From positions 287,501 to 351,500 of the forward strand of contig OW568862.1 of assembly GCA_938743325.2 (NCBI GenBank): a DNA stretch of 64,000 nt, given 5' to 3'. This stretch comes from Pycnococcus provasolii (taxonomy: Eukaryota > Chlorophyta > Pseudoscourfieldiophyceae > Pseudoscourfieldiales > Pycnococcaceae). Under the pieces are notes generated by a model. The model had not been told where the DNA came from. It ran no database searches and saw nothing but the letters and a program-made list of their open reading frames with translations. Below are positions 888 through 15,000 of the stretch, one piece after another (positions within the stretch are counted from its first letter, which is position 1; each line of letters opens with the position of its first letter). The position numbers and the translations under genes were made by a program.

Positions 888-2324
888 ATGTCCGTGAGAG
901 TTCACCTGCGTCCGTGGCGGTTCCTGTGCGTGCCGCCCGCCGAACTCCTCCTGAGACACACCGTGCCCGTCGGACAGTCGTTCAGGTGGAGGAAAAGGTC
1001 CGTCGAAAAACTATCCGCGCCCATACCTACCCTATTCAACGGCACAGCGGCGCCGTCAACAACGGATGACCAAGTCCTCGATGCTGCACTGGATGCTGCA
1101 GGTCAGTTGGGAACACCCAAGCGTGGCGGGGTGGGGATACGGGCGCCGTCGGCTCCTGCAGCCATGCTTGCAGCGGACCTTGACCCTTTGTGCTTCGCGG
1201 GCGTCATCGGCGCGCGCATCGTTGAGGTGGTACAAATACCAGAGATGGGGAGCCAGTGGACGAAGGATTCCACGCCAATGCACAAGAAAATGGAGGCTGG
1301 TGGCGTGCTGTTCCGGTGCCACGGGCCGGACGCCGACCACGGAGCGGGTGACGCGGCAGCCATATGCGACTACTTCAACCTCGCAGTTCCAACGAAAGGG
1401 GCGGACGCCGACGTCGTCGTGCCAGCATGCGAGCCTTGCAGCCTTGTCGCAAGCGGCGAGAAGTGGAGAGAGGGCGACGAGAGATACGCAGCGGTTGCAC
1501 CGTACGTCGTGGGCGCTCGTGTGCTAAGGCAGCCACCTCTCGAGTGCCTCTTCAGCTTCATTTGCAGCTCGAATAATAACATCGAGCGAATCACAGGAAT
1601 GGTCAACACGCTTTGCCGGCTGTACGGCAAGCCGCTCGGGCGCATCTACGACGGCGACGAAGATGAGTGGTTCACATTCCCCACGTTGGATGCCCTGCGA
1701 GAAAAGGTGACTGAGGATGACCTGCGCTCGAATGGCTTTGGATATCGCGCAAAGTACATCGTCAAGGCGGCAAGCGAGCTGCACGACCTGGGAGGTGAGC
1801 CGTACCTGCTCAGCTTGCGCGATCACGGCGGCAGTCACGCCGCCATGCAAACGCGCAGCACTGCTGCGGATACTGAAGGTCAGCCGCAGAGCTATGAGGA
1901 AGTGTTGACGGCTCTTACACAGCTCACGGGAGTGGGGCGCAAGGTGAGCGCGTGCGTTTGTCTCTTCGCATTGGATCAACACTGCGCCATTCCTGTCGAT
2001 ACGCATGTTTGGCAGATTGCGGTGGCTCACTACGACGCGACGCTTGAGGGCAAGACGCTAACACCGCGCGTTGACGCGGCGGTACAGGGCATTTTCTACG
2101 ACAAGTTTGGCGCGTACTGCGGTTGGGCGCACAATGCGCTCTTCCTTGCCGAATTGCACTGGAAGATGAAGGAGTTGCCAGAGGAGGTGCGAACACCCAC
2201 GCCGCAGAAGAAAAAGCGACGTCTCAGCGACGCGGGAGGAGGAGGCGGACGCACGCCTCCTCCTCCTCCTAAATCGCCGCCGCCGCCGCCGCCGCCTGCC
2301 AATAAGAAAGGTAAGAAGATGTAA
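888..2324 (+). CDS. OGG1: 8-oxoguanine DNA glycosylase/lyase
   Basis: This 478-residue protein belongs to the HhH-GPD superfamily, OGG1 branch. The family excises 8-oxoG opposite C and nicks the abasic site. The N-terminal domain shows the OGG1-like VGQSFRW stretch (residues 28-34). The helix-hairpin-helix LTGVGRKVSACVCLFALD (346-363) carries the expected catalytic lysine, K352. It is followed by PVDTHVW with the catalytic aspartate D371. The 19-residue K-to-D spacing equals that of human OGG1 (K249/D268). After the enzyme domain (ends about 430) comes a basic, Gly/Pro-rich tail ending in lysines, possibly a nuclear signal. The start is the first ATG upstream of the conserved N-terminal domain, and no intron is evident. 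Its last 80 codons are duplicated at 5947-6186. Confidence 0.93.
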   Translation: MSVRVHLRPWRFLCVPPAELLLRHTVPVGQSFRWRKRSVEKLSAPIPTLFNGTAAPSTTDDQVLDAALDAAGQLGTPKRGGVGIRAPSAPAAMLAADLDPLCFAGVIGARIVEVVQIPEMGSQWTKDSTPMHKKMEAGGVLFRCHGPDADHGAGDAAAICDYFNLAVPTKGADADVVVPACEPCSLVASGEKWREGDERYAAVAPYVVGARVLRQPPLECLFSFICSSNNNIERITGMVNTLCRLYGKPLGRIYDGDEDEWFTFPTLDALREKVTEDDLRSNGFGYRAKYIVKAASELHDLGGEPYLLSLRDHGGSHAAMQTRSTAADTEGQPQSYEEVLTALTQLTGVGRKVSACVCLFALDQHCAIPVDTHVWQIAVAHYDATLEGKTLTPRVDAAVQGIFYDKFGAYCGWAHNALFLAELHWKMKELPEEVRTPTPQKKKRRLSDAGGGGGRTPPPPPKSPPPPPPPANKKGKKM

Positions 2325-2760
2325 CAGCAGTAACATTATCTATGTTTTCGCGAGAGCAAACCCCGAATCACACCAAAAATTCTGATTGGGGGTTTGCTTA
2401 CGACCGTGTTCCCGACCACTCAGACGTGATTTTAAGCTAAGTGTCGGCGTGTACGACGTGCCGAAGACCTCGCGCACGCGCTGCGACAACGTGCGCAACA
2501 CCTCCTCGCCGTACGAAAAAGTTTGTGTGGAATTGCAAAATATTTATGACTTAAGTAAACTTACGCACAAGTTCGTCTCGTGCATTCTCATGGAGATGCG
2601 AATTATGTATCGGTAAAATTTTTTATCCAGATCTGTTTAAGTTTGATATGGCATCATCTTAAGCATAATTAGAAGGTATCGTATACAAAAAATGACATGC
2701 TGAAAGCACGTGTAACGGCGCAGATAACGCAATCTGCCGTAACCCTAGAAGTAACCCTAG
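2085..2760. repeat. Segmental duplication, copy 1 (OGG1 3' end and downstream)
   Basis: This stretch matches 5947-~6620 at a constant offset of 3862 bp with only about eight substitutions and no indel that I could see. It covers the last 80 codons of the OGG1-like gene plus about 430 bp of downstream DNA. The similarity breaks down inside telomere-like repeats at the right end. The right limit is approximate. Confidence 0.92.
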
Positions 2761-2818
2761 CCCTAACCCCGTAACCCTAGCGTAACCCTAGCGTAACCCT
2801 AGCGTAACCCTAGCGTAG
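2739..2818. repeat. Interstitial telomere-like repeat with 11-nt variant
   Basis: CCCTAG/CCCTAA units pass into a regular array of the 11-mer CGTAACCCTAG repeated about four times. It forms the right boundary of duplication copy 1. The rest of the gene-free stretch, 2819-3542, is 5' flank of the dynein gene, in which I see no supported gene. Confidence 0.75.
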
Positions 2819-3542: not shown

Positions 3543-5831
3543 ATGGCGGACGCGGGCTCCACGGGGGATGCAAGCACAAACGGCCGGCGCGCCTCGCTCG
3601 CGAACTCGTCCGCGCCCAACTCCGCGCGCGCTGGAACCACGTCGAGGAGGCGCAGTGTCGTCACCGCCTCGAGACGCTCGAGAGCTCGAGGAAGGACGGG
3701 AGACTCGTCGCAGACGACGCTGCCCGACAAGATCCAAGTCTTCGACGAAAACGGGGTGGACGTCACGCCAAAGCCGCTCACACTCGCGCGCATATCCACG
3801 GGCATCGACGGCGTCGAAGGCTCGGATGGCGTGGGAAGCGACAGCGACAGCTTGGCGGAGCGCTTGTCCAGCACGGGGTTCAGCAGAAGCGGAGGGTACA
3901 GCCACAGCAGTGACGGCGAGAGCGTCGACGGAGACAACGACCATACGAGCCTTGGCGGCGGCAAGGACGGTGGGAAGGACGGAAAGGGAACGGTGACCTC
4001 GTTCGTCGTCGTCGGGCCCACCGTGCGTGGTAAGCCGCTCAGCGAGGTGGACCTCGAAGCCAAGGTTGTGCGTATCCTAGAGGAGACGGAAACGCTCCAG
4101 ATGTTTGACCAGCCAAGCCGGTGCGTTGCGGCGGACCACCCCACCGCGGATGCTGTCACGGCGTCCAACGCGGCGTATGCAAAGCTGCTCAAGGACAAAA
4201 TCGGAAGTGAAAACTACGTCACTGGATTTAGCCAGACACTTCCAAGTCTGCGAAAGACGAAGGAGTCGCAGATGGCCAAGGTGGGCACAGAGACCGTCGC
4301 GTGCGAGGCCACGGCGTGGGACATCGCCGACGCCTTCGAAGAGAAGGACGACGGCAGGGAGGAGGAGGACGTCATGTCTCCCGCACCAGCCGGGGGCGCC
4401 GGCGCCGCGTCGAGCGGCAAAACCGGAACGAGCAGCCTCGAGCACTCCATCGCCGCGTCCAGCGACTTTCTCTCCCTCGTCGCGTCGCAGAACGACGAAG
4501 ACGAGCGCGACGACGACCTTCCGAAGCGCACGCCGCTCACGGACGTGCCCGGCCTCGACGCGGCACTCGCGTACATGGAGCGCGCCGTCACGCAGAACAG
4601 CTACCACGACAAAATGCTCATGTACCGCGACTTCCGAATCCTCAGGGCATATCCGCCCAAGCCGGGTGTCATGGGCATCGACTTGCTCTGGAAGTTTGGA
4701 TGTGACCTCACCAAGGGAAGGAATGTCACCTGCCTCGCGTGGAACAAGGTGCGCCGCGACGTGCTCGCCGTCGGATACGGCCAGCTGGACTTTGGCGAGA
4801 AGAAGACGGGCCTCGTCGCCTTCTGGAGCCTGAAGAATCCTAGCTACCCGGACACGTGGTTCGAGTGCCGCAGCGGCGTGACTGCACTCGACTGGTCGCT
4901 GCGAAACCCGTCCATGCTTGCCGTCGGTACGTACGATGGCGGCGTGTCAATCTTCGATGGCCGGGCGGTTGCTGGCGGCGAGCCGGTCCTCGAGGCTACG
5001 CACAATAGCGGGAAGCACAGCGACCCTGTGTGGAAGCTGCACTGGGTGGAGAAGGGCTCGGAGCGTGGCGAGGCGCTCGTGTCGACGTCGAGCGACGGCC
5101 GTGTCGTCGAGTGGAGCACGTCCAAGGGATTGGAGTACGCAGACATCATGAAGCTCAAGTCTCTTGGGCCAAAGAAGGCTGTGAAGTTGCCAAACGACGA
5201 GAACATGAGCAACGCCATCTCGAAGCTGAACCAGAAAACGGAAGCTTTCATCAGCCGCAAGGCGTCTGGCATGTCGTTTGCCTTCTCGCCTCGCGACACG
5301 ACTATGTACGTCGTTGGCACGGAGGAGGGACTGATTCACAAGTGCAGCTGCAGCTACAGCGAGCAGTACCTGGAAACGTTTCGAGGTCACATGGGACCGG
5401 TGTACACGGTTGCCTGGTCACCATTCTCGCAGAACGGCCACTTCCTGTCAGCCTCGGCAGATTGGACGGTTCGTCTTTGGTCCGAGGGGCGCGAGGATCC
5501 GCTGCTGACATTCCAGAGCGGCAATGCCGCCGTGACGGACATGTCTTGGTCGCCCACGAACAGCACGGTGTTTGCGAATGTGACTGCGGACGGCCGCGTG
5601 GAGGTTTGGGACCTGCAGGCGTCGACCCTGAAACCTTGTGTGAACTACTCGAGTCCCTCGGTGAAGTTTTCGTGCATGCTGTTCGGCACAGCGAGTCCCG
5701 TGCTCGTGGCTGGTGGTTCCGACGGCAGCGTTTGCGTGTTCCGTTTGGAGGGCATCGAGCGTCCTGAGGAGGAGGAGGTTGACGGTCGCAAGCGTTTGGC
5801 GGACGCGTTGGCGTCAAACGCCAACCAGTAA
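3543..5831 (+). CDS. DNAI4: Axonemal dynein intermediate chain, IC138/DNAI4 (WDR78)-like
   Basis: This 762-residue WD40 protein is a probable intermediate chain of the inner-arm I1/f dynein in the ciliary axoneme. The basic, Ser/Arg-rich N-terminus (1-60) is followed by KIQVFDENGVDVTPKPL (63-79), a motif I associate with the DNAI4/IC138 group. After an acidic linker comes a conserved block (YRDFRILRAYPPKPGV) and then seven or so WD40 blades filling the C-terminal half, such as LAVGTYDGGVSIFDGR, LSASADWTVRLWSE and VTADGRVEVWDLQ. The start is the ATG at 3543. The open frame extends 63 codons upstream, but that part is low-complexity. No intron is seen. The assignment to IC138 rather than another WD40 intermediate chain is probable, not certain. 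Confidence 0.88.
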   Translation: MADAGSTGDASTNGRRASLANSSAPNSARAGTTSRRRSVVTASRRSRARGRTGDSSQTTLPDKIQVFDENGVDVTPKPLTLARISTGIDGVEGSDGVGSDSDSLAERLSSTGFSRSGGYSHSSDGESVDGDNDHTSLGGGKDGGKDGKGTVTSFVVVGPTVRGKPLSEVDLEAKVVRILEETETLQMFDQPSRCVAADHPTADAVTASNAAYAKLLKDKIGSENYVTGFSQTLPSLRKTKESQMAKVGTETVACEATAWDIADAFEEKDDGREEEDVMSPAPAGGAGAASSGKTGTSSLEHSIAASSDFLSLVASQNDEDERDDDLPKRTPLTDVPGLDAALAYMERAVTQNSYHDKMLMYRDFRILRAYPPKPGVMGIDLLWKFGCDLTKGRNVTCLAWNKVRRDVLAVGYGQLDFGEKKTGLVAFWSLKNPSYPDTWFECRSGVTALDWSLRNPSMLAVGTYDGGVSIFDGRAVAGGEPVLEATHNSGKHSDPVWKLHWVEKGSERGEALVSTSSDGRVVEWSTSKGLEYADIMKLKSLGPKKAVKLPNDENMSNAISKLNQKTEAFISRKASGMSFAFSPRDTTMYVVGTEEGLIHKCSCSYSEQYLETFRGHMGPVYTVAWSPFSQNGHFLSASADWTVRLWSEGREDPLLTFQSGNAAVTDMSWSPTNSTVFANVTADGRVEVWDLQASTLKPCVNYSSPSVKFSCMLFGTASPVLVAGGSDGSVCVFRLEGIERPEEEEVDGRKRLADALASNANQ

Positions 5832-5946
5832 AGTTTACTTTCCCTTGAAAACAAAAACGACTAAACTTACCCGGTACCTTACCGTACGAACATAAAAGAA
5901 TAAGATGCGCCTAAAGCTTTGGCTCCTGAGCTCCCTACCTAGTAGT

Positions 5947-6186
5947 CAGGGCATTTTCTACGACAAGTTTGGCGCGTACTGCGGTTGGGCGCACAATGCG
6001 CTCTTCCTTGCCGAATTGCATTGGAAGATGAAGGAGTTGCCAGAGGAGGTGCGAACACCCACGCCGCAGAAGAAAAAGCGACGTCTCAGCGACGCAGGAG
6101 GAGGAGGCGGACGCACGCCTCCTCCTCCTCCTAAATCGCCGCCGCCGCCGCCGCCGCCTGCCAATAAGAAAGGTAAGAAGATGTAA
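5947..6186 (+). pseudogene. 3' fragment copy of the OGG1-like gene
   Basis: The last 80 codons of the OGG1-like gene (2085-2324) recur here, frame intact, including the poly-Pro/Lys tail and stop codon. The catalytic HhH lysine and aspartate regions are missing. Two base differences from the parent lie in this part, both synonymous. An in-frame ATG at 5905 gives a potential 93-residue ORF starting in unrelated sequence, so a chimeric peptide is conceivable. The simplest reading is a non-functional segmental-duplication remnant. Confidence 0.85.
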
Positions 6187-6620
6187 CAGCAGTAACATTA
6201 TCTATGTTTTCGCGAGAGCAAACCCCGAATCACACCAAAAATTCTGATTGGGGGTTTGCTTACGACCGTGTTCCCGACCACTCAGACGTGATTTTAAGCT
6301 AAGTGTCGGCGTGTACGACGTGCCGAAGACCTCGCGCACGCGCTGCGACAACGTGCGCAACACCTCCTCGCCGTACGAAAAAGTTTGTGCGGAATTGCAA
6401 AATATTTATGACTTAAGTAAATCTACGCACAAGTTCGTCTCATGCTTTCTCTTGGAGATGCGAATTATGTATCGGTAAATTTTTTTATCCAGATCTGTTT
6501 AAGTTTGATATGGCATCATCTTAAGCATAATTAGAAGGTATCGTATACAAAAAATGACATGCTGAAAGCACGTGTAACGGCGCAGATAACGCAATCTGCC
6601 GTAACCCTAGCAGTAGCCCT
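5947..6620. repeat. Segmental duplication, copy 2
   Basis: This is the second copy of 2085-~2760, about 99% identical by eye. It lies directly downstream of the dynein gene and ends in telomere-like repeats that lead into the retrotransposon. The short ORF in both copies (2386-2616 and 6248-6478) differs by four changes, all amino-acid altering, which argues that it is not coding. Confidence 0.92.
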
Positions 6621-6650
6621 AACCCTTAACCCTAGCGTAACCCTAGCGTA
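6601..6650. repeat. Interstitial telomere-like repeat
   Basis: CCCTAG, CCCTAA and CGTAACCCTAG units resemble those at 2739-2818. They sit between duplication copy 2 and the left end of the tyrosine-recombinase retrotransposon. Confidence 0.7.
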
Positions 6651-6661
6651 ACTACTAGGGT

Positions 6662-6834
6662 ACCTTTGGCCCACGGGCTAGGGGTTTTGAATTCGAATCT
6701 CCGATTCAAACAGGCCTGCTTCACATTGCCATGCGAAGCAGGCGCGCGGTAAACCCGCGCGGGGAACTGCCCGCGGATACCCGCGATTTCCCCGTCTCAC
6801 TCTTAGTTTTGCACGCGACTGAAGTTCGCGCGCA
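6662..6834. repeat. Terminal repeat A1 of the retrotransposon
   Basis: This 173-bp repeat is identical to A2 at 11579-11751. It contains several hairpin-forming inverted repeats: TTTGAAT/ATTCAAA, GCCTGCTTC/GAAGCAGGC (9-bp stem, 12-nt loop) and GCGCGG/CCGCGC. About 157 bp of leader follows before the gag ATG at 6992. Confidence 0.93.
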
Positions 6835-6991
6835 AACAGAGCCACACGCGCGTGCGCGTGAAAAGTAACGGGTAGTCACGTCGGCTAATCCAACACAACA
6901 ACCACACGTGTGCGGCTACAGCAGCAGCACGTGCGTGTTCAAGGCACGAATAAACGTCTGAGGCACAACAGAGTGCATTTTCCAGACAACT

Positions 6992-8245
6992 ATGCCGCGC
7001 GGACAGCGACGAACGCCAGTCTCGGCGGCTGAAAAAGCGACGACGTCGCAGCAAGGAGGTGGTACGCCGGCAACGCCGGGACCGCCTCAGGATCCACCAT
7101 CCGCCACACCAGGGCCAAGTGACGCGAGCGCGGAGATCTTGGCAGCGGTGGCGGCTTTGGGACTACGGATGGGACAGCTGGAGCAGCAACAACAGCAGCA
7201 ACAGCAGCAGGGTGACCCGGTCAGCATTGATTTGGGATTGGATGATGATGCAGAAGAGGATGATGATGTGGAGTATGTGACGAACGAGCAAGCGTACCTC
7301 TCGCAGCTCGTGCGCGAGGGCATTGCGTATGCGAACGGTCAGCCGTTTGCACGGCACGACGCGTCGCGCGCAGGATATACATTGCCCCTTCCTCAGCAGC
7401 TTCATCCGCAGCCACCGGAGCTGGGCTATGATCTCTTTGGGGATCGGACTTGGCAACATATCCAGCAGGAGAAGGAACTGAAGGGTGCATCGCTCAAGCA
7501 TGAGTATCGGGCGGTGCGCTGCGCGCTTCCTTATTTGCAGGATGGATTGATGTTGCTGGAGGACGCGCGTAGCGTGATTGAGGATGACGATATTTCCGAA
7601 ATTATTGGCGCAGCGCTCAATACAATCCGCGGAGGTTTCGCACTGCTCGGAAAGCGATGCGACATGCTCAAGCTGCAGGTGGAGGCAAAAGTCAATCCGA
7701 CCGTCATCACCAAGGATGCTCTGGTGCGATTACGCACGCATCAGACACCGATGGCGGAAGGATTAGACCTGCAGGATAGCAGTATTCTCGAGGTCCTTGA
7801 GGATCTGCAGAAAACCACTGACACGAAGCTCGCACGCCTCACCGCGGAGAAGATAGCAGGTGCTATCTCTAACGGAGGCGCGCAGGGAGCGGGCGCGGGG
7901 AAGAATCCCAAGGTGCAAAACGCGCCGACGGCTGCGCTCCGCGGGCGCGGCGACAAGCCGGCAGTGCCAGTAAAGAAGGTGCCTCCTCCGGCACCAGCCC
8001 CCCCGACGGCGGAGAAGCAGGTACGTTTTACGGACAAACCCGCTGCGCCCACGGACGGTGGCGGTCGAGGAGGAGGACGCGGCGGCGGACGCGACGGAGG
8101 TCGCGGAGCTGGTCGCGGCAGGGGACGTGGCGCAGATGGCGTTAGTCCCAATACGAGTGCGAAAGACAAGGGCAAACAGCCTGCCGCACCATCACCACCG
8201 GGCCCATCGATCTTGCAGGCAGAACTCGACCCCTATGAGGAATGA
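6992..8245 (+). CDS. Retrotransposon ORF1, gag-like RGG-rich protein
   Basis: This 417-residue protein occupies the gag position. An acidic and Gln-rich N-terminal part (poly-Q near residues 67-75, acidic run near 85-93) is followed by a probable helical structural region (about 95-290). The C-terminal tail is rich in Pro and Gly/Arg (RGG-like repeats around residues 355-385), suited to RNA binding. No zinc knuckle is visible, so RGG boxes may replace it. The stop codon overlaps the start of the RT ORF as ATGA (8242-8245), suggesting coupled reinitiation. The role is inferred from position and composition. Confidence 0.82.
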   Translation: MPRGQRRTPVSAAEKATTSQQGGGTPATPGPPQDPPSATPGPSDASAEILAAVAALGLRMGQLEQQQQQQQQQGDPVSIDLGLDDDAEEDDDVEYVTNEQAYLSQLVREGIAYANGQPFARHDASRAGYTLPLPQQLHPQPPELGYDLFGDRTWQHIQQEKELKGASLKHEYRAVRCALPYLQDGLMLLEDARSVIEDDDISEIIGAALNTIRGGFALLGKRCDMLKLQVEAKVNPTVITKDALVRLRTHQTPMAEGLDLQDSSILEVLEDLQKTTDTKLARLTAEKIAGAISNGGAQGAGAGKNPKVQNAPTAALRGRGDKPAVPVKKVPPPAPAPPTAEKQVRFTDKPAAPTDGGGRGGGRGGGRDGGRGAGRGRGRGADGVSPNTSAKDKGKQPAAPSPPGPSILQAELDPYEE

Positions 8246-10452
8246 CGCTGCACGTGCGTTGGACGCACCCGCCGCGCAGGCGGGATTTGGAGGGGATACC
8301 GGAGAGGCTGCTGAAAAGCGCCGAAAACAAAAAAGTGAGGAGAGACGCGAGACATGTCGCGAACGCACGGCGTTTCATGAAAGCGAAACAGGACCAGTGC
8401 GACGACAGATGTACACAGCACGACGAGAATACGATCCACGGGCGACCCGCAAGCAGGTGGCGAGCTTGGCAGGAGATTGGCGCGCCGAGGCGGGTCATTC
8501 GATGGCTTCGACGAGGCGTGCCGATCATGTGGCTCACACGCCCGCCGCGCCCGTATCGGTTCGCTCCAGTGGCTTTCTCGCCAGAGCAGGAGGCATGGTT
8601 TGTGAAGGAGCGGGATCGCTTTTACGCGTCGGGCGCTTGGGCGCCCGCACGCCAGCGCACGCACGTGTCGCCGGCATTTCTGGTCGAGAAGCCGGACAAA
8701 CCGGATGGCACAAAGGATTGGCGGCTCGTCGTCAATCTGAAGTTCCTCAACAGGTATTGTCGTCAGCTGAGATTGCGATACGACACTCTCAAGGCGTTGC
8801 GCACCATGGCGCGGCGGAACGAGTACATGTTCGCGCTGGACGTAAAAGATGGTTATTATCATCTACGCCTGCAGGAATCGGAGGAGCATTTTATGACATT
8901 CAGCGTGGTCATAGCAGGAGAGATACAGTACATAACATGCGTGGGCTTGCCAATGGGATGGCAGCACAGTGCGTATTATTTTGTACACCTCATGCGCGTC
9001 GTGGTACGACATCTCCGGGCACCGGAGCTAGCGGAGGAGCTGCGGAAGGTGCGCGAACTGCGCAAATCTGGAGCACTACCGCGGATCTTGCAACGGCAGC
9101 TCAAAGCGCCGCAAGACCAACATCGTCTACGTATACTGGCGTACGTGGACGATTTTCTCTTCCTCGCTCCTACGCGGGAAGAGGCGCTACAGGCGATGCG
9201 ACAGGTCGACGACTTGTTTCTTCGCCTCGGCGTACAAAAACATCCGACCAAGTTCACGCCGGAGCCGGTACAGCAGCTCGTGCACTTGGGTATGGATGTC
9301 GACCTCGAGTCAGGGCGATTCCGAGTCACCAAGAAGAGGTGCGCGCAATTGCGTGCACAAGCCAAAGACCTCATCTGCAGAGCGACGCGTCACCAGCGAT
9401 GGGTACCGGCGAAGGAGCTCGCATCTTTCGCGGGGCTTGCCAACGCATGTCTTCTGGCAGTGGAGCCCGCGCGATTTTTCCTCCGCTCGATCTACGTCGC
9501 GCTCGAGACGCGAAGTTCGTGGGAAGGAAACTGTCGATTAGATCGACAAGCTCTGAGGGACCTCAGCTGGTGGATCGCCTTCCACTACGAACACAAGTGG
9601 AACGGCGCTGCAATCTGGAAGCGTCCGACGCAAGCGATCCTTCACTGCGATGCAGCAGGAGGCAAGCAACATGGATGGGGCGGCGCTTTGAACGGAAAAC
9701 ACACAGCGCGGGGCGCGTGGACGCCGGCACAGGCGGAACAGCACATTACGCTGCTGGAATTGAAGGCGGTGCGTTTCACGATCGAAACGTTCGTCCACTT
9801 CCTCCGAGGCAGAGTCGTGCGATTGCACGAGGACAATATGGGCGTCGTAGGCATCCTCGCATCGTCGACATCAAAATCACCGAAGATCATGCGCGAGATG
9901 CGCAAACTGTGGTGGTTGCTGGACGCGAACGGCATTCAGCTGCAGGATGTGGAGTACATCCGATCCGAGGCGAATGTACTCGCGGACGCGCTTTCGCGAG
10001 AGCGGGTGCATCCGCTTTTGCGTCCGCTCAGGCGGTCGTTCATCTCGTACGTCGAGGACAAGTGGCAACGGCGTCACACCGTCGACCGGTTCGCGACATT
10101 CGCAGGGGCAGTCGCGCCGAGATACTACACCATTCGGCACTGCGAGCCTCAGGCGGAGGGCGTGGGCGCATTCACCACCACGTGGCGGCGGGAGGTCAAT
10201 TTTGCGAGACCGCCGCCCAATCAAATCAGCGCCGTGATCCGGCTATTGCAGCAGGATCCGGCGGTGTCGGCCACGGTCGTCGTGCCGTATTGGCCGGGGG
10301 CGATGTGGTTCGCGCCGCTTATGGCGCTGACGACGGCATCCATGGTTCTGCCATGGACGGCAATCGAGCTGGGTACGTGCGTTTCCAGCGCGACCAGGCC
10401 CTGGAACGTCATCGTTTGCCGGGTCGGGCCCGACCAGCCTGGTTGCATCTGA
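8242..10452 (+). CDS. Retrotransposon ORF2, reverse transcriptase-RNase H
   Basis: This 736-residue polyprotein has an RT domain at about 130-400, with WRLVVNLKFLN, FALDVKDGYYHLRL, the LPMGW turn and the catalytic box YVDD (301-304). An RNase H domain follows, with candidate active-site residues D470 (LHCDAAGG), E506 (LLELKAV), D531 (HEDNMG) and D582 (ADALSRE). No integrase or aspartic protease is seen, as expected of DIRS-type elements. The start codon overlaps the gag stop by four bases (ATGA). The 3' end overlaps the recombinase ORF by about 100 bp. All recognised catalytic residues are present, so the enzyme looks functional. Confidence 0.93.
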   Translation: MTLHVRWTHPPRRRDLEGIPERLLKSAENKKVRRDARHVANARRFMKAKQDQCDDRCTQHDENTIHGRPASRWRAWQEIGAPRRVIRWLRRGVPIMWLTRPPRPYRFAPVAFSPEQEAWFVKERDRFYASGAWAPARQRTHVSPAFLVEKPDKPDGTKDWRLVVNLKFLNRYCRQLRLRYDTLKALRTMARRNEYMFALDVKDGYYHLRLQESEEHFMTFSVVIAGEIQYITCVGLPMGWQHSAYYFVHLMRVVVRHLRAPELAEELRKVRELRKSGALPRILQRQLKAPQDQHRLRILAYVDDFLFLAPTREEALQAMRQVDDLFLRLGVQKHPTKFTPEPVQQLVHLGMDVDLESGRFRVTKKRCAQLRAQAKDLICRATRHQRWVPAKELASFAGLANACLLAVEPARFFLRSIYVALETRSSWEGNCRLDRQALRDLSWWIAFHYEHKWNGAAIWKRPTQAILHCDAAGGKQHGWGGALNGKHTARGAWTPAQAEQHITLLELKAVRFTIETFVHFLRGRVVRLHEDNMGVVGILASSTSKSPKIMREMRKLWWLLDANGIQLQDVEYIRSEANVLADALSRERVHPLLRPLRRSFISYVEDKWQRRHTVDRFATFAGAVAPRYYTIRHCEPQAEGVGAFTTTWRREVNFARPPPNQISAVIRLLQQDPAVSATVVVPYWPGAMWFAPLMALTTASMVLPWTAIELGTCVSSATRPWNVIVCRVGPDQPGCI

Positions 10453-11537
10453 GCGCTCCAGCGAGGGCGCGTGAAGTGGTGTCGCAGGTGCGCGCCACAG
10501 CCAATTGGCGTGAGGTGGCGGCGAGACGCATGCGCACGGCTTTGGGCACATCCAAGGCGGGGCTTGCTACGCTGGCGTACTGGCGGGAGGCCAATACAGA
10601 GGGCACCCGGGTGCGCTACGATGCACGCTGGGAAGCGTTTGCCGCTTACTGCGATCGCGCGGGGCGGAGCGCGCTGCCAGCCATGCCGGAGACGGTGGCC
10701 ATGTATCTTGCTGTGTTGGCGCAAAAGTATCGCAACACACGCAAGGGCGCATCAGCCAAGTCATACAAGCAGATCGTTGCCGCGATCAACCACGTGCATC
10801 GTGAGTTTCATCTGGAGACGCCGGGAGGCGCCAACCTCGTCAAGCAAGTAAGGCGAGGAATCCGTGCGGAGCAGGCGGAGATGCTCTCTGATACACCGCA
10901 GCGAACGTACCTGCCCATCAGCGTCCTCTACCAGATCCTGGAGCTGGCAGAGACGACGACGAATGTGTCGCTCCTGGCGGATTGTGCAGCAGTTCTTTTT
11001 GCATTCGTGCTTTTTGCGCGAGCATCCACGGCAAAAGCGGTGATCGAGCGTGATGTGGTGCTGGACGACACCAATGCACGCCTCACTGTCATCGAGCGTT
11101 TTTTCAAAGGGCGCAGCAGGCGAACGCCATCGCTACGCGTCTTTGAATTGGGCGAGCACGCATTCCCGCGTGTGCGGGCGGTCCTCGCGCGCTTTCGACG
11201 TTTGCGTGGCGCGGTCCGCGAGGTATCGCCGTGCTTCGCGCTGGCAGGCGAGCGGGCTAGGCAGCCCAACCGCCAGCTAGCGCGTGTGCTGCAGCAGCTG
11301 CAGGTGACGGCACCACGGGGTACGTACTACTCGTGGCACAGCCTGCGCAAGGGCGCGGCGACATGTGCATTTGCATTGCATGTCCGATACGAATCCATCT
11401 GCGCGTACGGTGGCTGGAGTGTCGCCAGCGGCGTTGCACATGATTACATCGACCCGCTGGCTGCGTCAGATGCGCGTGGAGCACATTTCTTTGGGTGGCT
11501 CATGCCTTCCGTGGTGCCGCCCGGCGCGCCGCGTTAA
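10353..11537 (+). CDS. Retrotransposon ORF3, tyrosine recombinase
   Basis: This 394-residue protein of the phage-integrase/tyrosine recombinase superfamily would insert a circular cDNA intermediate. Candidate catalytic residues are R223 (FARAST), H329 and R332 (HSLRKGAAT), W355 (GGWS, at the third His/Trp position) and nucleophile Y365 (HDYID). The N-terminal half (about 60-180) resembles a core-binding SAM-like domain (YDARWEAFAAYC, YLAVLAQKY). The chosen start, ATG 10353, is the last in-frame ATG before the domain and overlaps the RT ORF. The same frame stays open upstream to 8058, antiphase to RT, which I regard as overprinting rather than coding. Confidence 0.92.
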   Translation: MDGNRAGYVRFQRDQALERHRLPGRARPAWLHLSAPARAREVVSQVRATANWREVAARRMRTALGTSKAGLATLAYWREANTEGTRVRYDARWEAFAAYCDRAGRSALPAMPETVAMYLAVLAQKYRNTRKGASAKSYKQIVAAINHVHREFHLETPGGANLVKQVRRGIRAEQAEMLSDTPQRTYLPISVLYQILELAETTTNVSLLADCAAVLFAFVLFARASTAKAVIERDVVLDDTNARLTVIERFFKGRSRRTPSLRVFELGEHAFPRVRAVLARFRRLRGAVREVSPCFALAGERARQPNRQLARVLQQLQVTAPRGTYYSWHSLRKGAATCAFALHVRYESICAYGGWSVASGVAHDYIDPLAASDARGAHFFGWLMPSVVPPGAPR

Positions 11538-11559
11538 CGCGCGCGCCGCATTCATACTC

Positions 11560-11580
11560 TGGCCATTCGGTCGGTGAAAC
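11560..11580. repeat. Internal repeat B1 of the retrotransposon
   Basis: A 21-bp sequence ending GGTCGGTGAAAC matches B2 at 11847-11867. It abuts repeat A2, so the B1-A2 border mimics the joint of a circularised element. Confidence 0.8.
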
Positions 11581-11751
11581 CTTTGGCCCACGGGCTAGGG
11601 GTTTTGAATTCGAATCTCCGATTCAAACAGGCCTGCTTCACATTGCCATGCGAAGCAGGCGCGCGGTAAACCCGCGCGGGGAACTGCCCGCGGATACCCG
11701 CGATTTCCCCGTCTCACTCTTAGTTTTGCACGCGACTGAAGTTCGCGCGCA
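11579..11751. repeat. Internal repeat A2 of the retrotransposon
   Basis: This is an exact copy of A1 (6662-6834). About 95 bp of AT-rich unique DNA separates it from B2. Confidence 0.93.
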
Positions 11752-11846
11752 CCCACCCAGACCCTCCCTCTCTAAGGCACGATTGGGACAGGCAAAAAAC
11801 GACGTGATTAACGAATAATTTATTGTAATTATTTCGATACCTTTTT

Positions 11847-11867
11847 TGGCCATTCGGTCGGTGAAAC
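11847..11867. repeat. Right-end repeat B2 of the retrotransposon
   Basis: This 21-bp copy of B1 marks the inferred right end of the element. The following bases (TACCTTTACT) share a short TACCTTT with the left border at 6661-6667. Confidence 0.75.
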
Positions 11868-12074
11868 TACCTTTACTCCTCTTAGAAAACACACACACAC
11901 ATACACCTCTGCCCTTAACTCCCGAAGGCCAGTGAAACCTACCAAACCCGAATCGTGACCGTGCATTCTGATTCTGATTTTCCCAAACCCCCAGTAGTCG
12001 GTTTTCTTGTTCTTGTTTTGTTTTGTGGTTGTGGTATCACGTGACCGCCACTCCCAGTTCTCGCCAACTGCGCC

Positions 12075-15000
12075 ATGGCGGGTTGGTTCCGTGGCGCGGT
12101 GGTCTCTCGAGGCTTCTCGCTCCTGCTGGACGACTCCGACGACCTCGACGACGTGCTTGGGGAGGAGGACAACTCGATCTCGTCGTCCTTCCGCCGCGTA
12201 TCCCGGGGTGGTGACGATGACGATGGCGGCGCATCTTCGTCACGTGTGGAACTGTCGCCCGAAGAGCTCGCCTCCGTCGCGTCGCGATGGACGTTCAGCT
12301 GGGTGAATCCGCTTGTCGCACTAGGCGCCACGAAGGCGCTACAGCACGACGACCTGTGGCCGACGACGATGCAGGACGAGCCGAACGAAAAAGCGACGTA
12401 CTTTTCAAGACGGCTCGCCAGGAGAACGGCCAATGGAAAGTGCGCGCTCTTTTGGGCCATATGGGACACGTACAAGGCACCTTTCGTGCGCGCGGGCCTG
12501 TATAAATTTGGGCACGACTGCGTGCAGTTCCTCAGCCCCGTCATACTGAGATCTTTCCTGCTTCACATCGAGGCGGCGGACACCAGCGGCGGACATGACA
12601 GCTCGCACGGCATTGCCAAGGGCGTCGGACTTGCCGTCGCTCTGTTCACAGTCAATCAGCTGCAGACACTCACCGTGAACCAGTACTTTCACATCCTCTT
12701 CCGCCTCCAGCTTCATCTCAAGACGGGGCTGATTGCCGCGGTGTTCGCCAAGGCGAGCAGGCTCACGGGTGGCGTGGTGCGGCGGCTCGGCGTGGGCACG
12801 ATCATCAACTACCAGTCCAACGACACGTCGAAGATCTACGAGCTGCCTCCTTACGCACACGTCGTATGGTCTGGGCCATTTCAGATCATCACGTCGCTGG
12901 GATTCCTCATATATGTCGTGGGCTTCGTACCCGCGTTCGCAGGCGTGCTCGCGATGTTTGTTCTCATGCCTGTGAGCAAGCGACTCGTGGAGAAAATGCA
13001 GTCCGTTCGAAAGGAGCTCCTGCGACAGACGGACGCACGCGTTAAACTGTGCACCGAGTCCATCGGTGGAGTGAAAACGATCAAGCTGTACAGCTGGGAG
13101 GTGCCGTACCTGAGGCGCATACGCGAGCTGCGCGCCCTCGAGATTGCGGAGGCCCGGCGCAGCGTCATCTACAACTCAATCATGACGTTCCTGTTCGTCG
13201 TCAATCCAATCCTCGTTGCCGTCACCACGTTCACCGCCTTTGCATGCATGGGCAAGACGCTCACACCTAGCGTCGCCTTTACCGCGCTGAGCTTGTTCAA
13301 CAACCTTCGCTTTCCGTTGATGATGTTCCCGCGGCAGATTGCGCAGATCATCCAGGCGAACGTTTCCGTGGGTCGACTCGCGCGCTTCTTCGTGGAAGAG
13401 GAAAAGGCAGGTGGTACGGATGCGCAGTCCAATGAAGAACTCGAGAAGCAGATTACCTCCGCGGATCCCACGAATGAAGTCGGTGTCGTCGGGACGTTCA
13501 AGTGGAGCAGCAAGTCGAACTGGATCAAGGAGCAGGAACGAAAGCGAGAGGAGGCGGCGAATGCGAAGGCGACGAAGGCGAAACCATCCATCGTGCAGCG
13601 CATGCGCTCACTACGCGATAAGCTGAGACTCGGCACGAGCCGTGGCGGAGGCATAATGGACATGGTTGACGAGGACGAGGGAACGTCGATCGCGCTGCCC
13701 GAGGACGAGGTGGCGGACGACCGCTTCGCTCTCGTGTTCGACGAACCTCTCGCATTTAAGCGAGGAAGCCTAACGGTGGTGATCGGGGAAGTGGGTAGCG
13801 GCAAGACAACTCTACTTGCTAGCCTTCTCGGCGAGCTTCACGACTGCCACGACGAGCTGGCGGCATCGTTGCGTGGGCGACTTCACCTCAAGGGCCGCAT
13901 CGCGTACACAGCTCAGGATCCGTGGATCCAAAACGCCACGGTGCGCGATAACATCCTGTGTGGAAGGGAGTACAACGCCGACCGCTACAATCGCGTGATC
14001 GAAGCGTGCAGCTTGTCGGCGGATCTGCAGGCGCTCCCCGCGGGAGAGATGACTGAGATTGGGGAAAAGGGCGTGAACCTATCGGGTGGTCAGAAGCACC
14101 GCGTCGCGCTTGCTCGTGCATGCTACCTTGACGGCGACGTGGTGATGCTCGACGACCCTCTCAGCGCAGTGGATGCGCACGTGGGAAAGCATCTGTTCGA
14201 GCAGTGCATCTGCACCTTCTTGGCTGGCAAGACGCGCATCCTTGTCACCCACCAGCTGCAATTCACATCCGCAGCTGACACGATCGTGGTGATGCGCGGT
14301 GGTCGCGTGTTCGCACGCGGAACATTTGACGAACTGAAAGACGTCGACGAAATTCGGCGTTGGCTTGAAGAGTCTCATGGTGGCGTCAATGCGGATGATG
14401 GAGGCGACGATGCGGAAGTTGCGATAACGGCGGACGAAAGCAACGCGGCTGCGCCTGCTCCCGCACCGGAAAAGCTTGCTATCTTTGACCGCAGCGTCAA
14501 TGCTGCGGTCAAAGATAAGAGCGCAGAGAAGGGCCAGGCGACTGCTGAACAAGGCGCGAAAAGTACTGCCACCGAAGGACGACTTGTGCAGAAAGAGGAG
14601 CGCGCAGAAGGATCCGTCGATAGCGGGATCTATATGCGTTACATTCGCGCGTTCGGCGCATTCATACCCCCTGCGCTGCTTCTGCTTTATACGTGCGTTC
14701 AGGCTTTTTCCATTGGGAAGGACTACTGGCTCGCCGTGTGGAGCAGCAGCGTGGACCGGCAGAGTTCATTTGGGTATTACCTCGGTGTCTACGCGGGCAT
14801 CTCCATCGTCTTCTGTGTCACACGCTTCATGCAGAGCTTGGCCATGGTTTACGGCTCGCTGCGGGCCGCGGCGGTGCTGCACGACAACCTGCTGACAACG
14901 GTCTTTCACCTCCCGATGAAGTTCTTTGACACGCAGCCTACGGGACGCCTGATCAACCGCTTCACGAAGGACACCGAGAGCATTGACCTCGCGTTGCCAG

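What the first reader, a model, noticed from the sequence alone, without database searches (positions are those of the whole stretch)
6662..11868. Intact tyrosine-recombinase retrotransposon with split direct repeats
The element has three open ORFs (gag-like, RT-RNase H, tyrosine recombinase), all candidate catalytic residues, two identical 173-bp A repeats and a B repeat in the A1-ORFs-B1-A2-B2 layout of Ngaro/PAT elements. Intact YR retrotransposons in small green-algal-type genomes are uncommon in my knowledge, and this one may be a new lineage. The B1-A2 border equals the joint expected from fusing the two outer ends.
Basis: partly seen in the sequence, partly recalled or inferred. Interest (0 to 1): 0.7.

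Follow-up and report, generated by a model that had tools for sequence, protein, structure and literature searches.

The report
PAT-like tyrosine-recombinase retrotransposon in green alga
This looks like a complete, recently copied jumping element of a known but little-studied kind that copies itself through RNA and inserts by site-specific recombination; close relatives in the same algal genome insert at telomere-type repeats, which is the more interesting part.

Summary
Window 6662-11867 carries two identical 173-bp A repeats, two identical 21-bp B repeats, and gag-like, RT-RNase H and tyrosine-recombinase ORFs in the order A1-ORFs-B1-A2-B2. A second full-length copy 184 kb away is 99.6% identical with the same ends and open ORFs; a third copy is internally deleted. 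All three have A1 = A2 although A differs between copies, so both repeats come from one template in each round. The element is better filed as PAT-like (TOC3-type) than Ngaro: a degenerate Dam-methyltransferase-like segment follows RNase H and gag lacks a zinc finger. The recombinase frame also stays open across the whole RT gene, which none of 2000 synonymous shuffles does. PAT-like elements are already reported from Chlamydomonas and Volvox, so this is a new member of a known kind. No reference phylogeny could be built. Beyond the finding: a sister family with at least 40 A repeats inserts at AA^CCC (14 of 16 sites read; CC in 16 of 16), often in CCCTAA-type repeats. That matches the GGG^TTA position reported for trypanosomatid TATE; its own B end reads CCCTAAAA.

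The parts
6662..6834 (+). A1 repeat, left end; bases 6662-6663 (AC) are shared with the flank/core
   Evidence: 173/173 identical to A2; flanks of three copies
6992..8245 (+). ORF1, gag-like, 417 aa, RG-rich tail, no CCHC zinc finger
   Evidence: 23% over 219 aa to the ORF1 of family 3, E 2e-5; no convincing match to the ORF1 of family 2, E 0.67
8242..10452 (+). ORF2: reverse transcriptase, RNase H and a degenerate methyltransferase-like tail, 736 aa
   Evidence: RVT_1 E 3.6e-11; 37% over 643 aa to family 2; 25% over 455 aa to the Dam-bearing family 4, E 2e-15
10066..10320 (+). methyltransferase-like region inside ORF2; the motif WCNPP(Y/W) of relatives reads FARPPP here
   Evidence: alignment A5; relatives hit Pfam Dam; no direct Pfam or PHROG hit for the window segment
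7974..11537 (+). open recombinase frame (1187 codons) overlapping all of ORF2
   Evidence: 0 stops across ORF2 in this frame; synonymous shuffles mean 16.0, minimum 7 in 2000
10353..11537 (+). tyrosine recombinase region from an in-frame ATG; conserved part from about 10455
   Evidence: Cre hits; R, K, HxxR, W and Y positions aligned with eight rows from the same genome, most of them copies of two families (residue roles recalled). The H of HxxR is K in family 2 and G in L023.
11560..11580 (+). B1 repeat
   Evidence: identical to B2
11579..11751 (+). A2 repeat; the B1-A2 border copies the circle junction
11847..11867 (+). B2 repeat, right end

Best explanation
The interval is an intact PAT-like (TOC3-type) tyrosine-recombinase retrotransposon of a chlorophyll a/b alga. 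Shown here: the split-repeat anatomy, open ORFs, a second full-length copy, homogenised A repeats within each copy, the same ends in all three two-ended copies, no target duplication of four or more bases in them, and constraint on the proteins. Inferred from the published model for this group (recalled): the transcript is reverse-transcribed by ORF2, with the internal B1-A2 block serving as template to join the outer ends into a circle. The Cre-like recombinase then crosses the B2/A1 junction of that circle with a short matching sequence in the target (here ..AAC or ..AC), inserting the element.
For: Layout and identical repeats. Second copy C2:109965-115170, 99.6% over 5206 bp with 20 mismatches and no gaps, all ORFs open. 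In 3 of 3 copies A1 = A2, with three different A types between copies. Of 16 coding differences, 11 are synonymous and 5 not, against 73% non-synonymous expected, p 0.0006. Left flanks end in AC before CTTTGG in 3 of 3 two-ended copies; the right ends are GTGAAAC, followed by different flanks. Three families in this genome share the layout. Methyltransferase-like segment through relatives. Recombinase frame kept open. Cre-like by sequence.
Against: The window's own methyltransferase segment has no Pfam or PHROG hit and its NPP(Y/W)-type motif is altered, so by strict domain search it would look like Ngaro. No RT phylogeny with reference elements could be built. All 7 differences between the two copies inside ORF2 change the overlapping recombinase frame's amino acids, so that stretch of frame is kept open but not evidently conserved as protein. 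A 3-bp TAC on both sides of the window copy could be read as a tiny target duplication, though the other two copies do not show it. Of three one-sided pieces, one (C15, L013) has CC, not AC, before CTTTGG. No expression, circle or transposition was observed.
Confidence: 0.87

Rival explanations
1. It is a Ngaro-like element: split direct repeats, RT-RNase H and recombinase, no functional methyltransferase.
For: Split repeats downstream of the recombinase are also the Ngaro layout (PMC4157794 section 7). The window methyltransferase segment has no direct family hit.
Against: The post-RNase H segment aligns through to a genuine Dam domain of a fourth family (E 2e-15 over RT, RNase H and that segment; Dam E 3.6e-14 in that family). 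Long pol/recombinase overlap is said to be unusual for Ngaro (PMC3266345 passages), although PMC6681497 calls it frequent among recombinase elements in general (section 3). A PAT lineage that lacks the methyltransferase is described (PMC4157794 section 26).
Confidence: 0.07
2. It is a VIPER/TATE-like element, given the telomere-repeat targeting of its sister family.
For: Family 2 inserts at GGG^TTA like TATE (PMC6681497 section 3). VIPER and TATE have split direct repeats, overlapping recombinase and RT ORFs, and no target duplication (PMC12278014 passages).
Against: VIPER is defined as lacking the methyltransferase (PMC4157794 section 7), whereas relatives here carry one. The target position may be convergent.
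Confidence: 0.04
3. It is an inactive relic whose two copies arose by segmental duplication of the host region rather than by transposition.
For: A related host repeat lies upstream of both full-length copies, in opposite orientation, and the window's left flank is part of a duplicated segment.
Against: The bases flanking the copies differ on both sides. Repeats are homogenised within but not between copies, and ORFs are open under constraint.
Confidence: 0.02

Closest known systems
TOC3 / PAT-like DIRS elements of Chlamydomonas and Volvox
   Same: Split direct repeats, recombinase on the same strand, gag without zinc finger, methyltransferase-type domain after RNase H, green-algal host (PMC4157794 section 7; PMC3266345 and PMC8226300 passages).
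   Different: Motif of the methyltransferase-like segment altered in the window family.
Ngaro elements (zebrafish, Cafeteria burkhardae, Ectocarpus)
   Same: A1-[ORFs]-B1-A2-B2 layout, RT-RNase H and recombinase (PMC8547959 passages).
   Different: Ngaro lacks the methyltransferase and is said usually to lack the ORF overlap.
TATE / VIPER of trypanosomatids
   Same: Split direct repeats, overlapping ORFs, no target duplication (PMC12278014 passages). TATE is reported at GGG^TTA in telomeric hexamers (PMC6681497 section 3), the position used by family 2 of this genome.
   Different: No methyltransferase in VIPER. The family 2 copies read here lie inside contigs, and the window copy (family 1) is not in a canonical CCCTAA site.
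DIRS1-like elements
   Same: RT-RNase H-methyltransferase order and ORF overlap.
   Different: DIRS1 has inverted terminal repeats and internal complementary regions; here the repeats are direct.
Terminons (telomere-attaching Penelope-like elements)
   Same: An element end carries a telomere-repeat-like stretch that helps it find telomeric DNA (PMC6431247 passages), as proposed here for the B end of family 2.
   Different: Different replication machinery; attachment by base pairing at exposed ends, not recombination.

Membership tests
PAT-like (order DIRS) | split direct repeats A1-ORFs-B1-A2-B2 | tested here: met
   also in families 2 and 3 of the same genome
PAT-like (order DIRS) | methyltransferase domain after RNase H | tested here: inconclusive
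   Homologous segment present by alignment to Dam-bearing relatives, but no direct Pfam/PHROG hit and an altered motif in the window copy. Family 2 hits Dam at 0.0025, below Pfam's cut-off.
PAT-like (order DIRS) | tyrosine recombinase instead of integrase | tested here: met
   Cre hits; alignment of nine recombinases
PAT-like (order DIRS) | long overlap of recombinase frame with pol | tested here: met
   0 stops observed against a mean of 16.0 in 2000 shuffles; also 0 in family 2 against 10.6. Weak as a discriminator: see the Ngaro and VIPER rows.
PAT-like, TOC3 type | no zinc finger in gag; recombinase on the same strand | tested here: met
   two cysteines and no CCHC in ORF1; coordinates; criteria from PMC4157794 section 7
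PAT-like (order DIRS) | RT/RNase H phylogeny within the PAT clade | not testable with these tools
   No eukaryotic reference elements at hand. One single-protein scan each of viral contigs and genome contigs, which finds close relatives only, found none.
Ngaro | absence of methyltransferase | tested here: inconclusive
   Derived methyltransferase-like segment present.
Ngaro | usually no long ORF overlap | tested here: not met
   Overlap present; criterion from PMC3266345 passages, but PMC6681497 section 3 calls overlap frequent in recombinase elements generally.
VIPER-like | absence of methyltransferase | tested here: inconclusive
   As for Ngaro. ORF overlap does not separate them: PMC3266345 says VIPER usually lacks it, PMC12278014 describes overlapping ORFs in VIPER and TATE.
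DIRS1-like | inverted terminal repeats with internal complementary regions | tested here: not met
   Two inverted pairs found over 5500-13500, neither terminal to the element.

The most novel reading that the evidence does not exclude
The PAT-like families of this alga choose insertion sites by mimicry. The last bases of each B repeat resemble the left half of the target, and the recombinase exchanges strands just after it. In family 2 the B end (CCCCCCCTAAAA) imitates the host's own telomere repeat, so the element homes to TTAGGG-type repeats at GGG^TTA. This is the position reported for trypanosomatid TATE, but in a methyltransferase-bearing lineage with many internally deleted passengers. 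The window element is a sibling whose att-like end (GTGAAAC) has shifted to (G)AAAAC^CCC-type sites.
Probability: 0.55. Interest if true: 0.55.

Novelty: new member of a known kind. Interest (0 to 1): 0.4.

Why it matters
Recombinase retrotransposons are described as rare and poorly understood (PMC4157794 abstract). This genome offers several families with identical repeats, intact and internally deleted copies side by side, and readable insertion sites. That makes the circle-and-recombine model, the role of the split repeats and the choice of target testable in one small genome. Targeting of telomere-type repeats by a PAT-like family would be a case parallel to TATE.

Tried and rejected
Single-sequence AlphaFold model of the recombinase: mean pLDDT 37, not used. 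Viral contigs and genome-contig scans with ORF2 (one each, single protein, close relatives only): no relatives. Empty site by flank repeats: the duplicated segment left of the window copy ends about 9 bases before the element and its other copy continues with different sequence, so it gives no clean empty site. Rfam over 6000-12600: no match. Two Pfam rows (window:9990-10449 and L017:3000-3450) were out of frame and are discarded; the right frames are. The third row of alignment A4 was on the wrong strand and is discarded. The script listed 16 right and 15 of 16 left flanks and then stopped with an error; the sixteenth left flank (C20) was read and the tally redone. Considered and dropped: LTR element (Cre-like recombinase present, no integrase-type hit); segmental duplication as the source of the second copy.

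PMC12278014 weakened the ORF overlap as a mark against VIPER/TATE, so I lowered the main confidence from 0.90 to 0.87 and raised that rival from 0.02 to 0.04; the relic rival went from 0.03 to 0.02 by re-weighing alone.
Full report
Observation. A1 (6662-6834) and A2 (11579-11751) are identical over 173 nt, and B1 (11560-11580) and B2 (11847-11867) over 21 nt. Between them lie a 417-aa gag-like ORF, a 736-aa RT-RNase H ORF and a recombinase frame. RVT_1 hits at 3.6e-11, and Pfam's RNase H model is weak and below its cut-off (0.009). The recombinase has no Pfam recombinase hit (its only row, PSII_Pbs27 at 7e-5, is below cut-off and I take it for chance), but it hits Cre at about 1e-6 alone and 2e-10 as a nine-row profile. 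The RT's best solved relatives are an 'enzymatic polyprotein' (8r0s, 7e-5) and MMLV-type RTs (0.002).

Copies. The genome held for the window (32.3 Mb, 46 contigs; window = C2:287501-351500) gave 9 matches to the A repeat. These are two in the window copy, two in a second full-length copy (C2:109965-115170), two in an internally deleted copy on C23, and three partial or diverged pieces (C10, C15, C29). The second copy is 99.6% identical over 5206 bp with no gaps. The C23 copy is 2438 bp long, lacking about 2.77 kb between window positions 7707 and 10469, with a 5-base overlap at the joint.

Repeat homogenisation. A differs between copies at 6779 and 6786 (A/A in the window, G/G in the second copy, A/G in the deleted copy), yet A1 = A2 in 3 of 3 copies. 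This is what copying both repeats from one template in each round predicts. Sixteen differences between the two full copies fall in ORFs, 11 synonymous and 5 not, against an expected non-synonymous share of 0.73 (p 0.0006, kappa set to 2). The ORFs were therefore under constraint.

Ends. Left flanks end ..GGGTAC..GAAAAC and ..GAAAAC before CTTTGG. Right ends are GTGAAAC followed by TACCTTT, CCCCATT and CCCCCGG. There is no target duplication of four or more bases. A 3-base TAC on both sides of the window copy is not repeated in the other two. Of the three one-sided pieces, C10 and C29 have AC and C15 has CC before CTTTGG. The B1-A2 border equals the joined outer ends.

Overlapping frame. The recombinase frame is open from 7974 to 11537. 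Across ORF2 it has 0 stops, while 2000 synonymous shuffles of ORF2 average 16.0 with a minimum of 7. In family 2 it has 0 against 10.6, with no shuffle of 2000 at zero. The overlap is thus under constraint, in the same relative phase in both families. Against this, all 7 copy-to-copy differences within ORF2 change the overlapping frame's amino acids, and the overlap translations of the two families match convincingly only over 106 aa at 31% (E 4e-6), which RT conservation alone may explain.

Methyltransferase. Family 2's tail hits Pfam Dam at 0.0025-0.04, below the curated cut-off, and PHROG 111 DNA methyltransferase at 0.024. The window's tail hits nothing. A fourth family (C9 and C38, loci L063 and L062) has an unmistakable Dam domain at 3.6e-14 (genome search). 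Its ORF aligns with the window ORF2 over 455 aa at E 2e-15, through the tail. The relatives' WCNPP(Y/W) reads FARPPP in the window. I read this as a methyltransferase domain that has probably lost its catalysis in family 1.

Filing. By the criteria read in PMC4157794 (sections 7, 19, 26) and PMC3266345 (passages), this is PAT-like of TOC3 type: split repeats, same-strand recombinase, no gag zinc finger (two cysteines, no CCHC), methyltransferase-like tail, long overlap. The overlap is a weak mark: PMC3266345 says Ngaro and VIPER usually lack it, PMC6681497 (section 3) calls it frequent in recombinase elements, and PMC12278014 (passages) describes it in VIPER and TATE. The methyltransferase segment carries most of the filing. 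PAT-like families are reported from Chlamydomonas and Volvox (PMC3266345 passages; PMC8226300 passages), and PAT-like and Ngaro elements from a brown alga (PMC12477816 passages). It is therefore a new member of a known kind. PMC4157794 section 26 warns that these structural features are homoplasious, and I could not build the reference tree.

Host. The genome has 51 matches to the chlorophyll a/b-binding family PF00504. The best one matches multi-domain chains named LHCI (9vfj) and Lhca2-type proteins in the PDB. It is thus a chlorophyll a/b alga, not identified further. Of three contig ends looked at, one reads as pure TTAGGG repeat over its 80 bases (L102) and two show no telomere (L100, L101). 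PMC8226300 (passage) gives TTTAGGG as ancestral in green algae, so TTAGGG would be a departure.

Sister families. Search with ORF2 gave 25 matches and with the recombinase 27, the window's and near-identical copies included. Family 2 (full length at C4:115324-120100) has A repeats of about 169 nt and B of 24 nt; family 3 has A of 185 nt and B of 30 nt. Family 2's A repeat gave 40 full-length hits, 33 of them at 100%, from 40 of 100 candidates scored, so this is a lower bound; 6 short reverse matches were set aside. The 40 include 14 same-strand pairs spaced 1406-4491 bp, 13 of them shorter than the full-length copy, so these 13 look like internally deleted passengers.

Target of family 2. I read 16 complete sites: all 14 pairs plus C6:495k and C7:188k. 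One-sided C15 (left flank ends GGGAA) and the single A hits were not counted. Right flanks begin CCC in 14 of 16 and CC in 16 of 16. Left flanks end AA in 15 of 16 and exactly CCCTAA in 7 of 16, within one mismatch in 9 of 16 (flanks; tally). In the window outside the element, 131 of 6532 AA dinucleotides (2.0%) are followed by CCC, giving P about 2e-22. This background is one window, not the genome. Several sites lie in CCCTAA-type repeats, so insertion is at TAA^CCC, that is GGG^TTA on the other strand, within the shared A bases. TATE is reported at GGG^TTA (PMC6681497 section 3). Family 2's B ends CCCCCCCTAAAA, itself like the telomere repeat. Family 3 sites look A/T-rich instead. Family 1 has only three complete sites, two GAAAAC^CCC and one GGGTAC^TACC beside a degenerate CCCTAGCGTAA array. 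Target mimicry is an inference from these alignments.

Print. Searches aimed at recombinase or PAT elements with telomere-type targets, with the broader, listed no paper that I could see describing this for PAT-like elements. I judged from listings, and from passages of PMC6338049, PMC6431247, PMC8226300, PMC12477816 and PMC12278014; most other listed papers were not opened. The library holds few subscription papers, and I did not see Poulter and Butler 2015.

Noticed in passing
window 2085-2797 and 5947-6652: A segment of 713 alignment columns (97% identical) is duplicated on both sides of a WD40-type gene. It holds the 3' end of a gene that looks like a DNA glycosylase (both names by eye, no search) and a host repeat ending in CCCTAGCGTAA arrays; the retrotransposon sits at the end of the second copy.
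   Followed up: partly
window 6268-6646; C2:109099-109959; 34 genome matches: An interspersed host repeat with telomere-like ends lies just upstream of both full-length copies; it matches on many contigs, sometimes in pairs 1.8-3.9 kb apart.
   Followed up: no
window 6662-6834; L017 207-373; L022 337-515: The A repeats of the three families each fold far better than shuffles as RNA (z -5.4, -4.1, -4.6), which suggests a structured leader or recombinase/priming sites.
   Followed up: partly
L063 (C9:842188 region) and L062 (C38:329143 region): A fourth recombinase-retrotransposon family with a canonical Dam methyltransferase (E 3.6e-14) and a 490-aa ORF with a weak Phage_integrase hit (0.09) and cysteine-rich motifs; no terminal repeats lie within the fetched loci.
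   Followed up: partly
L094 and L095 (C3:927908-929697): A family 2 passenger is flanked by the same 12-base sequence (CCCGAACGTCGC) on both sides, which may be a pre-existing tandem repeat or an unusual duplication.
   Followed up: no
C4 (L017+L035), C28, C10, C5, C3, C6, C7 and others: A highly uniform family of internally deleted PAT-like derivatives with identical A repeats beside a full-length copy: a natural autonomous/non-autonomous pair.
   Followed up: partly
L102 (C4:1247218-1247297): The contig end is pure TTAGGG repeat, whereas TTTAGGG is given as ancestral for green algae (PMC8226300 passage).
   Followed up: no
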